From: Roseivivax sp. GX 12232
GTDB taxonomy: Bacteria; Pseudomonadota; Alphaproteobacteria; Rhodobacterales; Rhodobacteraceae
NCBI RefSeq assembly: GCF_021272185.1
Contig: NZ_JAJSEC010000002.1
Coordinates: 1-64,000, forward strand
Reading direction: 5' to 3'
Length of the DNA: 64,000 nt
Part shown: positions 1-59,484 of the stretch, one piece after another
How the letters are laid out: each line of letters begins with the position of its first letter
How positions within the stretch are numbered: the stretch's first letter is position 1
Notes under the pieces: generated by a model
What the model was told of the DNA's origin: nothing
Databases searched by the model: none
What the model saw: only the letters and a program-made list of their open reading frames with translations
Program-made: the position numbers and the translations under genes

Positions 1-550
1 GGGCGCAAGAGGGCGTGGGTGCCAGCCGAAGGCCCAGGCACCGGCGGTCTATTCAGAGAAAACGGGGTTGAGATCGCGGCTCCCCAACCCATCAGCAAGC
101 CTCGACAGAGGGCGCGCACCGGACCGGGGGTCGGCGCCGCTGAGTTCTGAGCGAGGCGCTTTATGGCAGAAAGGTCAGGACTAGGGGTGAGCTAAGCGCG
201 CCATCCCAAGGAGCGCCGGCCCAAGGGGCCGGTCCGGCGCGCGCCCGGCACCTTCGGTGCTATTCGGGCGCAAGTAGGCGCGGGGTGTTGCCGAACACCC
301 AGGCACCGGCGGTCTGTTCGGCGGAAATCGGGGTGAGGTCGCGGCTCCCCAACTCATCAGCAAGCCTCAACAGAGGGCGCGCACCGGACCGGGGGCCGGC
401 GCTGCTGACCTTTGAGCGAGGTGCTTTATCCCAGCAAGGTCAGGACCAGGGGTGAGCTAAGCACGCCATCCCAAGGAGCGCCGGCCCAAGGGGCCGGTCC
501 GGCGCGCGCCCGGCATCTTCGATGCAATTCGGGCGCAAGAAGGCGCGGGG
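1..550. repeat. Tandem 265-bp structured repeat (2 units plus start of a third)
   Basis: Two consecutive units (1-265 and 266-530) and the first ~20 bases of a third (531-550) share the same order of blocks with an exact 265-bp period: a GGGCGCAAG start, a CACCGGCGGTCT block, CAGAGGGCGCGCACCGG, a GCTTTAT block, GGTGAGCTAAGC, CGCCGGCCCAAGGGGCCGG and a terminal nested hairpin. A truncated relative lies at 38853-39043. Each unit ends in a seven-base stem, GCGCCCG with CGGGCGC, that encloses a second five-base stem with a TTC loop. I see no credible gene. The short open frames across it change between units. Positions 551-613 hold nothing recognisable. Function unknown. Confidence 0.85.
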
Positions 551-613
551 CTATAGGGCGTTCCTCTAAAGGGGATCCGATCACTTTCGCGCCCTCAGCC
601 CCAGCCGCCCCTC

Positions 614-1426
614 TCACCCCACCGTATCCGGCAGCGAGATATTCGCCACCTGCTCGGCGATCGGGTCGGTATGCCCGGGGTCCATGTCGCGCGAGAAATC
701 CTCGCTGCCGTCCAGCGCCACCCAGCCGCCGTCGCGGAAGACCTCGAGGCCCTTGAAGTTGCGCTTGTAGCCCATCTTCGGGCTGCCCGGCACCCAGTAG
801 CCCAGGTAGACGTAAGGCAGCTTCGCCTCCCGCGCGATCTCGATGTGATCGAGGATCATGTAGCCGCCGAGCGACTGCCGGGGCGTGTCGGGCTCGTAGA
901 AGGAATAGACCATCGACAGCCCGTCATCGAGCACATCGGTCAGGCAGACCGCGGTCAGATGGTCGTCGGCGCCGTCGACATATTCGATCACCCGGCTGCG
1001 GATCGGGGTCTCTTCGATCATCGCGGCGAACTCGAAGATGTCCATGTCGGCCATGCCGCCATCGGCGTGGCGGGTGTCGAGGTAGCGGCGGAAGAGGCCG
1101 TATTGCTCCTCGGTGGCCCAGGGGCTGGTGGCGCGGCGCAGCAGGTGGGCGTTGCGCTTCAGCGTGCGGCGCTGGCTTTTCGACGGGGCGAATTTCGACA
1201 CGTCGATCCGCGCCGAAAGGCAGGCCGTGCATTCCGAGCACGACGGCCGGTAGAGCACGTTCTGCGAGCGCCGGAAGCCCTGTTTCGACAGCGAGTCGTT
1301 CAGCCGCTCGGCCTGCGGCCCCTGCAGGGCGGTGAACAGCTTCCGTTCCATCCGCCCCTCGAGATAGGGGCAGGGCTGCGGCGCCGTCACGTAGAATTGC
1401 GGGGCAAGGGGCAGCGTGTGGCGCAT
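614..1426 (-). CDS. bpt: Aspartate/glutamate leucyltransferase (Bpt, N-end rule)
   Basis: Transfers leucine from Leu-tRNA to proteins whose N-terminal residue is Asp or Glu, marking them for ClpS/ClpAP degradation in the cytoplasm. The 270-aa length fits the family. The N-terminal half carries CPYLEGR (residues 19-25) and the cysteine cluster [10 protein letters not shown] (61-70), typical of arginyl/leucyl transferases. The C-terminal half has the GNAT-like segment around [17 protein letters not shown]. The ATG start is followed at once by family-conserved sequence. It is the last gene of the minus-strand group before the repeat array and looks monocistronic, with a 114-bp gap from the RDD gene. 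Arginyltransferase is the older name; leucyl specificity is inferred from the bacterial subfamily. Confidence 0.93.
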
Positions 1427-38852: not shown

Positions 38853-39043
38853 CCACATGCACCAACAGAGGGTGCGCACCGGACCGGGGGCCGGCGCTAC
38901 TGCCCTCCGAGCGAGGCGCTTTATCCCAACAAGGTCAGGGCTAGAGGAGAATTAAGCGCTTCGCCCACAAGAGCGCCGGCCCAAGGGGCCGGTCCGGCGC
39001 GCGCCCGGCATCTTCGATGCTATTCGGGCGCAAGAGGCGCGGG
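38853..39043. repeat. Truncated copy of the 265-bp structured repeat
   Basis: Matches the distal two-thirds of the units at 1-530: CAACAGAGGGTGCGCACCGG, then the GAGCGAGGCGCTTTATCCCA, CGCCGGCCCAAGGGGCCGG and terminal nested hairpin blocks (GCGCCCG 39001-39007 with CGGGCGC 39025-39031; inner stem GCATC/GATGC). The part corresponding to the first ~100 bp of the unit is missing. Confidence 0.85.
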
Positions 39044-39090: not shown

Positions 39091-39186
39091 GGCTTCTAGG
39101 CTTCTAGGCTTCTAGGCTTCTAGGCTTCTAGGCTTCTGGTCTTCTGGTCTTCTGGGCTTCTGGGCTTCTAGGTTTCCAGGCTCCAA
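39091..39186. repeat. Octanucleotide tandem array (GGCTTCTA)n
   Basis: Five perfect GGCTTCTA units from 39091, then variants (GGCTTCTG, GTCTTCTG twice, GGCTTCTG, GGCTTCTA, GGTTTCCA, GGCTCCAA), for about 12 units of exactly 8 bp. Decay runs from one end to the other. Not in a gene. Confidence 0.9.
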
Positions 39187-59128: not shown

Positions 59129-59484
59129 GGGTTTGGGTCGGGGCGCTTTATCGAAATCTTGCGCTTGTTGAACCTGTGGGAGCGAGGGGGCTGTCTGCCC
59201 CCTCGCGCTCCCCCGAGAGGTATTTTTGGCCCGGTCAGGCCGGGGGGCTGGTGCTGGGTGATATTGGGCGCGTCGGGGTGAGGTGTCTGCGCTTGTTGCG
59301 GGTTCGGGAACGAGGGGGCTGTCTGCCCCCTCGCGCTCCCCCGAGAGGTATTTTTGGCCCGGTCAGGCCGAGGGGCTGGCGCTGGGTGATGTGGGGGCGC
59401 GTCGCGGGTGAGGTGGCGTGCCTGGCGCGGCGGCGGGCACTATGCGCTTTTGTCGGCGGGCGGGGCGGGATAGACCTCGGGGCG
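59129..59484. other. Gap before ccmA with tandem duplication
   Basis: 356 bp mostly filled by two 128-bp direct copies (59161-59288 and 59289-59416), each with one core-plus-hairpin element. No gene. The ccmA promoter or read-through from the preceding gene must cross it. Confidence 0.75.
59161..59416. repeat. 128-bp tandem duplication containing elements e and f
   Basis: Two copies with exact 128-bp offset, starting GCGCTTGTTG and ending GGGTGAGGTG-like, about 85-90% identical by eye. Each contains hairpin GAGGGGGC-TGTCT-GCCCCCTC (59184-59204 and 59312-59332) and the minus-strand core CCGAGAGGTATTTTTGGCCC (59213-59232 and 59341-59360). Confidence 0.88.

What the first reader, a model, noticed from the sequence alone, without database searches (positions are those of the whole stretch)
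1..550. 265-bp structured repeat in tandem, with a truncated relative 38 kb away
Seen directly: units 1-265 and 266-530 have an exact 265-bp period and the start of a third unit; the distal two-thirds recurs at 38853-39043. Blocks such as CGCCGGCCCAAGGGGCCGG and the nested terminal hairpin are nearly invariant while spacer bases differ. It fits no rRNA, tRNA or insertion sequence known to me. It could be a non-coding RNA family, a protein-binding array or a non-autonomous mobile element.
Basis: partly seen in the sequence, partly recalled or inferred. Interest (0 to 1): 0.7.

Follow-up and report, generated by a model that had tools for sequence, protein, structure and literature searches.

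The report
Family-wide mobile hairpin repeat, unknown mover
The tandem repeat is part of a roughly 165-base folded DNA element, present in over 200 copies in this bacterium and in about half of the sampled genera of its family, that is present at some gene pairs and absent at the same pairs in related species, although the enzyme known to move similar elements was not found in any of the nine searched genomes of its genus.

Summary
The conserved element is about 160-165 bp (window 107-269, 372-534, 38867-39029). The 265-bp period is element plus unconserved spacer, and the copy 38 kb away is complete. Its 24-base core occurs 226 times in the 4.12-Mb genome, inferred to be a Roseivivax. A covariance model finds relatives in 71 of 149 sampled genera of the family and, in a class sample of 289 genomes, in none outside it. 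Rfam has no match.

The element is a long imperfect hairpin with compensatory changes. One internal strand is complementary both to the 5' end and to the 3' tail, and the three boxes change together. Copies are intergenic, show no target duplication, and lie head-to-tail when close (31 of 31 pairs). Occupied and empty sites at the same gene pairs in Sulfitobacter and Leisingera plasmids show gain or loss.

It behaves like a REPIN or YPAL-type non-autonomous repeat, but the REPIN mover (Y1/RAYT transposase) gave no match in 9 of 9 Roseivivax genomes. The likeliest reading is a new family of non-autonomous hairpin elements with an unidentified mover. An RNA role is not excluded.

The parts
1..12 (+). 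Tail box (GGGC) and 3' extension of a further array copy cut off by the contig end
   Evidence: Same register as 266-277 and 531-542; window 1 = G000:C12:1
107..269 (+). Element A: 5' arm 110-137, central segment with CTTTAT 159-164, 3' arm 213-246, tail hairpin 247-269 ending in tail box GGGC
   Evidence: boundaries from 90 diverse copies
270..371 (.). Unconserved spacer between A and B (completes the 265-bp period)
   Evidence: Conservation over 148 core matches is confined to the element; 31 spacers compared
372..534 (+). Element B: 5' arm 375-402, CTTTAT 424-429, 3' arm 478-511, tail hairpin 512-534 ending in tail box GGGC
38867..39029 (+). Element C, complete solitary copy: 5' arm 38870-38897, 3' arm 38973-39006, tail hairpin 39007-39029

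Best explanation
It is one family of non-autonomous, hairpin-forming mobile repeats of the Rhodobacteraceae that works like REPINs or Yersinia YPAL: small palindromic DNA spread in intergenic space by a trans-acting enzyme, but not by a recognisable RAYT/Y1 transposase. SHOWN: over 200 conserved copies here and relatives across the family; covarying long hairpin; a single internal strand complementary to both ends (5' box, 3'-arm box and tail box co-change); no detected target duplication; intergenic placement favouring gene ends; head-to-tail orientation of close copies; occupied versus empty orthologous sites. INFERRED: the element is handled as a folded single DNA strand; the 3'-arm box acts as a guide that base-pairs with either end to position cleavage or joining, as guide tetranucleotides do in IS200/IS605; and an as yet unidentified host- or element-encoded nuclease does this. 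Central segments appear to be exchanged between copies by recombination (inferred from one clear case).
For: 226 core copies, control 0. 71 of 149 family genomes and 7 of 9 genus genomes. 10 of 28 stem pairs with double compensatory change. Boxes in 108 elements: 5' box pairs with 3' arm 90, 3' arm pairs with tail 100, 5' box repeated in tail 90; shuffles mean 38, max 52 of 1000. Sharp ends AAGCC|NNNC and TTCC|NNNC. 144 of 148 core matches intergenic, and the four that overlap genes are chance core-only matches. 38 of 50 convergent versus 13 of 61 divergent sampled intergenic regions occupied, p about 1e-8. Close pairs same strand 31 of 31, 16 of 18 in other genomes. Occupied/empty sites: three S. 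faviae plasmids versus S. dubius and DSM 110093; Leisingera NJS204/NJS201/M527 versus L. methylohalidivorans and two L. caerulea strains. G005 copies L281 and L291 absent at the matching G007 place. 27 tail-only matches versus 139 complete copies.
Against: No mover identified; no Y1 transposase match in the genus. No empty site is clean to the base: at the Leisingera site the occupied form lacks about 40 bp of the empty form's intergenic sequence, and no target duplication marks insertion. Loss rather than gain is not formally excluded. 9 of 15 examined G005 copies sit at orthologous sites in G007, so turnover is slow. Cross-genus G-U pairs outnumber A-C mismatches in the stem (about 53 versus 23), which would favour an RNA strand. 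The element went undetected in 78 of 149 family genomes.
Confidence: 0.6

Rival explanations
1. A structured non-coding RNA family. The transcript switches between a long hairpin (3' arm with 5' arm) and a compact tail hairpin (3' arm with tail), and the many copies are paralogous RNA genes or RNA-derived copies.
For: Compensatory changes and invariant unpaired motifs; two mutually exclusive conserved helices share one strand; cross-genus G-U excess in the stem; tail-only copies resemble 5' truncation.
Against: In the own genome G-U 37 versus A-C 44 at stem pairs, so no sign that one RNA strand is selected. No orientation bias against tandem genes, 37 versus 33. No sigma-70-like promoter in 1-620, but the shuffles expect 0.0 too, so this says little. 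Nothing in Rfam. For RNA-derived copies: no reverse transcriptase match in G000, RVT_1 in 4 of 9 genus genomes.
Confidence: 0.2
2. A host-selected element at gene ends (transcription barrier between convergent genes, mRNA 3'-end stabiliser or nucleoid site), spread passively by recombination rather than transposition.
For: Convergent intergenic regions strongly preferred, and called gene starts kept at least about 128 bp away while gene ends come as near as 3 and 20 bp. In Salipiger sp. CCB-MM3 the element fills the gap between two convergent genes. In S. faviae it follows a terminator-like hairpin with a T-run.
Against: Avoiding promoters is also what a tolerated insertion would do. No T-run after the tail in the copies read. 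Absent from orthologous sites in sister species and undetected in 78 of 149 family genomes.
Confidence: 0.12
3. True REPINs mobilised by a RAYT (Y1) transposase that was lost or missed.
For: Same life style: inverted hairpin pair, hundreds of extragenic copies, tandem clusters that can include flanks (PMC3116915, passages read). A divergent HuH class flanked by atypical high-copy structures exists (PMC6006769, passage read) and might escape the Pfam model.
Against: PF01797: 0 of 9 genus genomes, while the control finds it in E. coli and Caulobacter; 61 of the 71 element-bearing family genomes have none, and presence is not significantly associated (10 of 15 versus 61 of 134, p=0.17). No GT[AG]G at the hairpin feet by inspection.
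Confidence: 0.04
4. A classical MITE derived from a DDE insertion sequence.
For: Small, repeated, carries inverted repeats.
Against: No target duplication of 2-10 bp enriched at the boundaries in 140 copies; ends are asymmetric, with a tail hairpin beyond the inverted repeat.
Confidence: 0.04

Closest known systems
REPINs (REP doublets forming hairpins), Pseudomonas and others
   Same: Inverted hairpin pair, hundreds of copies, extragenic, tandem clusters that can include flanks (PMC3116915, abstract and passages read); persistence for millions of years (PMC8049555, abstract and passages read)
   Different: About 165 bp with a third (tail) hairpin and three co-varying boxes; no RAYT/Y1 match in the genus; one recognisable sequence family across some 70 genera, whereas REPs are described as species-specific (PMC6006769, passages read)
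YPAL / RU-2, Yersinia palindromic sequence
   Same: About 168 bp, inverted repeats internal, not A+T-rich, no TA ends, no proven mover (PMC2229807, passages read)
   Different: YPAL is reported to make target duplications of 3-26 bp; none detected here. Different host group; sequence not compared
ERIC / RU-1
   Same: About 127-bp intergenic long stem-loop found in several enterobacteria and Vibrio cholerae, no proven mover (PMC2229807, PMC2267715, passages read)
   Different: Predicted as a single stem-loop; no tail hairpin or box trio mentioned in the passages read
IS200/IS605 ends (guide tetranucleotide pairs with cleavage site)
   Same: Hairpin ends and base-paired recognition of short end sequences (PMC6006769, passages read) as a model for the three boxes
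   Different: No Y1 match in the genus; here one internal strand matches both ends

Membership tests
REPIN | Pair of inverted REP-like hairpins, high copy, extragenic | tested here: met
REPIN | Cognate RAYT (Y1_Tnp, PF01797) gene in the genome | tested here: not met
   0 of 9 genus genomes; 61 of 71 element-bearing family genomes without
REPIN | GTAG/GTGG tetranucleotide at the hairpin foot | tested here: not met
   By inspection of the 32-sequence alignment and the end profile AAGCC|NNNC (90 of 114 elements; 24 dropped for lacking a box match)
IS200/IS605-derived element | Y1 transposase in the genome | tested here: not met
   0 of 9 genus genomes; in the family 15 of 149 have one, 10 of these with the element
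IS200/IS605-derived element | Internal guide base-pairs with end sequences | tested here: inconclusive
   Three-way covariation fits, cleavage not testable
MITE | Target-site duplication | tested here: not met
   140 copies, lengths 2-10 over a wide range of offsets
MITE | Terminal inverted repeats matching an autonomous IS | not tested
   No systematic IS search made
YPAL/ERIC-type small mobile sequence | Under 200 bp, repeated in intergenic space, folds into stem-loop(s) | tested here: met
YPAL/ERIC-type small mobile sequence | Sequence homology to YPAL or ERIC | not tested
   No reference copy compared
Known Rfam RNA family | Covariance-model match | tested here: not met
   No gathering match in the window; no match up to E 5 in window 1-620; in six loci of relatives one sub-threshold match, outside the element

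The most novel reading that the evidence does not exclude
A new class of non-autonomous mobile element in which a single internal guide strand is complementary to both termini, so that end recognition is by base pairing with one shared guide, and which is moved by a nuclease family not yet linked to such repeats. The fixed head-to-tail orientation and two preferred spacings (about 263 and 317 bp) of mostly non-duplicated neighbours would then reflect directional insertion beside a resident copy.
Probability: 0.3. Interest if true: 0.82.

Novelty: new variant of a known kind. Interest (0 to 1): 0.62.

Why it matters
A repeat making up about 0.9% of this genome (226 x 165 bp), found in about half of the sampled genera of a widespread marine bacterial family, matches no Rfam family and was not found in print by nine searches. 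It is a candidate counter-example to the link between REPIN-like populations and RAYTs, and its co-varying boxes make a concrete, testable guide model. Identifying the mover could reveal a new transposition enzyme. At the least it may be an unrecognised cause of assembly breaks (the window itself starts at a contig end inside an array) and of intergenic change in Rhodobacteraceae.

Tried and rejected
Rfam at gathering and relaxed thresholds: nothing relevant. Target-duplication scan: nothing at the boundaries. First gene caller put genes on the wrong strand and was replaced by one trained from amino-acid composition, which recovered the five Pfam-tested genes, one with a later start. RAYT hypothesis tested and rejected for the genus. 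Retroposition: no reverse transcriptase match in G000, so disfavoured, not excluded elsewhere. Head-only partials could not be counted because the head pattern matches the opposite strand of the 3' arm; the 11 core-only matches are chance matches at 5-7 mismatches, and so are the four of 148 core matches that overlap genes. Spacer homology: only two groups of three dimers share long spacer matches, so dimers are not all copies of one dimer. Phages: no blastn match with our sequence. Plasmids: none with our sequence, but relatives found with other queries. Two viral-collection contigs hold a full element; not pursued. Exact-pattern matches in genome contigs: 86 of 95 loci hold a match of 100 or more positions; the nine without include the records titled Glycomyces, Azospirillum, Streptomyces (three) and Parahaliea, which have at most short partial matches. 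Literature: nine searches, listings read; passages of PMC3733652, PMC3116915, PMC2267715, PMC2229807, PMC8049555 and PMC6006769 seen by 'find' only. No description of this element found; most subscription papers are not in the library.

Full report
OBSERVATION. The two units 1-265 and 266-530 are real (87% identical, ungapped), a third unit starts at 531, and the repeat recurs at 38853-39043. The window is the start of contig C12 of a 4.12-Mb draft genome, and bases 1-4 are the tail box of yet another copy cut by the contig end.

THE REAL UNIT. The 24-base core occurs at 226 places with up to 3 mismatches, against 0 for the reversed control. I fetched DNA around listed copies and worked with 148 core matches (up to 5 mismatches) in 488,505 bases; 142 of them are within 3 mismatches, so 142 of the 226. 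A few of the rest are chance matches in genes. Conservation is confined to about 190 bp; 131 of 140 copies measured are exactly 162 bp between fixed anchors. So the 265-bp period is element plus spacer, and the 38-kb copy is complete. In diverse relatives the ends are sharp: AAGCC|NNNC on the left, TTCC|NNNC on the right, with information falling to near background just outside (90 of 114 elements, 24 dropped because no matching box pair was found).

ANATOMY. Full-length relatives from six other genomes align over about 165 columns. The 5' and 3' arms form one long stem; of 28 predicted pairs 10 show compensatory double changes. Unpaired motifs, TTTAT above all, are invariant or nearly so. Beyond the 3' arm lies a tail hairpin. 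The box at the 5' end, the complementary box in the 3' arm and the box at the tail end co-vary. From 100 chosen loci the model gave 140 matches, 116 after removing overlapping opposite-strand ones, 108 after dropping short or gapped ones: 5' box and 3' arm pair in 90, 3' arm and tail in 100, and 5' box equals tail box in 90, where 1000 shuffles give a mean of 38 and a maximum of 52. Nine box types are consistent at all three places, two of which (CGCG, CGGG) may be register shifts of others. In several exceptions arm and tail agree and the 5' box deviates, so the arm-tail pairing is the firmer of the two. The arm therefore has two mutually exclusive partners. The alignment is fitted to the arm-arm stem but not to the tail pairing; relatedness of the sequences is not corrected for.

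DISTRIBUTION. The covariance model built from that alignment finds the element in 7 of 9 genus genomes, 71 of 149 family genomes, one per genus, at E up to 1e-4 with 19 candidates scored per genome, and 4 of 289 class genomes, all four in this family (only 10 candidates per genome scored, so weak matches may be lost). Exact-pattern matches in a few records from outside the family (Glycomyces, Azospirillum, Streptomyces, Parahaliea) are at most short partial matches. Plasmid relatives listed lie under no annotated feature. Rfam has none.

PLACEMENT. 144 of 148 core matches lie between called genes, and the four others are chance matches (home-made gene caller that recovers the Pfam-tested genes). 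Occupied regions: 38 of 50 convergent, 52 of 160 tandem, 13 of 61 divergent (loci were chosen for having copies, so only the contrast counts). In tandem contexts there is no orientation bias, 37 versus 33. Close neighbours (under 500 bp) are head-to-tail: 31 of 31 in this genome among 141 good copies, with spacings bunched at 253-268 bp (10) and 308-324 bp (14), and 16 of 18 in other genomes (where two further pairs are from this genome). These neighbours are only slightly more alike than random pairs (0.883 versus 0.865); for 5 of 31 pairs the neighbour is the closest copy, so a minority are recent duplicates. Tail-only matches number 27 against 139 complete copies.

MOBILITY. In G005 and G007, 9 of 15 examined G005 copies have a G007 copy at the same place; for two of the others, the two tested, G007 has the flanks but no element. 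At one shared site the element body is reversed between conserved inverted 5'-arm pieces. In plasmids, three S. faviae records carry the element between dctP and an ABC transporter gene (gaps of 246-250 bp), while S. dubius and Sulfitobacter sp. DSM 110093 have gaps of 90-93 bp without it; Leisingera NJS204, NJS201 and M527 carry it between tviB and a GFA gene (184-185 bp in NJS204 and M527), while L. methylohalidivorans and two L. caerulea strains have 64-65 bp. Within S. faviae, two strains differ at 29% of central-segment columns while arms and flanks differ by 3-5%, which suggests exchange of central segments between copies.

WHAT MOVES IT. No target duplication was detected. The REPIN mover, a Y1/RAYT transposase, gave no match in 9 of 9 genus genomes with working controls; in the family 10 of 15 Y1-bearing and 61 of 134 Y1-lacking genomes have the element (assuming both calls drew the same 149 genomes, as their handles indicate). 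A divergent HuH enzyme could escape the Pfam model. G000 has no reverse transcriptase match; 4 of 9 genus genomes do. The enzyme is unknown.

DNA OR RNA. Within the genome, stem deviations are G-U 37 and A-C 44, as expected if neither strand is selected as RNA; one A-C site contributes 20 and one G-U site 10. Across genera the main stem shows about 53 G-U and 23 A-C (derived by leaving out the three poorly aligned tail pairs), which leans towards RNA. Together this is inconclusive. The promoter scan of 1-620 found nothing but expects nothing by chance either.

CONCLUSION. By way of life the element is closest to REPINs and YPAL, but it fails the RAYT test of the first and shows no target duplication as reported for the second. 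I take it as a new family of non-autonomous hairpin elements with an unidentified mover and, tentatively, guide-paired ends.

Noticed in passing
window 39091-39182: Array of 11.5 copies of GGCTTCTA just downstream of element C.
   Followed up: no
window 59178-59415: Tandem repeat of period 128 bp, 1.8 copies, 93% matches.
   Followed up: no
L042 9718-9907 (about G000:C1:90717-90906): Three solo tail hairpins at 73-bp steps downstream of a complete element; tails recur alone elsewhere.
   Followed up: partly
L279 1400-1720 versus L292 1454-1760: Same site in two species with the element body in opposite orientation between shared inverted 5'-arm pieces.
   Followed up: partly
L355 versus L356, about 1387-1547: Central segment strongly changed between two strains of one species while arms are conserved.
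   Followed up: partly
L351 259-426; L352 1830-1994: Two viral-collection contigs hold a full element; could be host flanks.
   Followed up: no
G000:C12 about 138-351 kb: No listed copy in about 213 kb although the genome average is one per 18 kb; the lists are incomplete.
   Followed up: no
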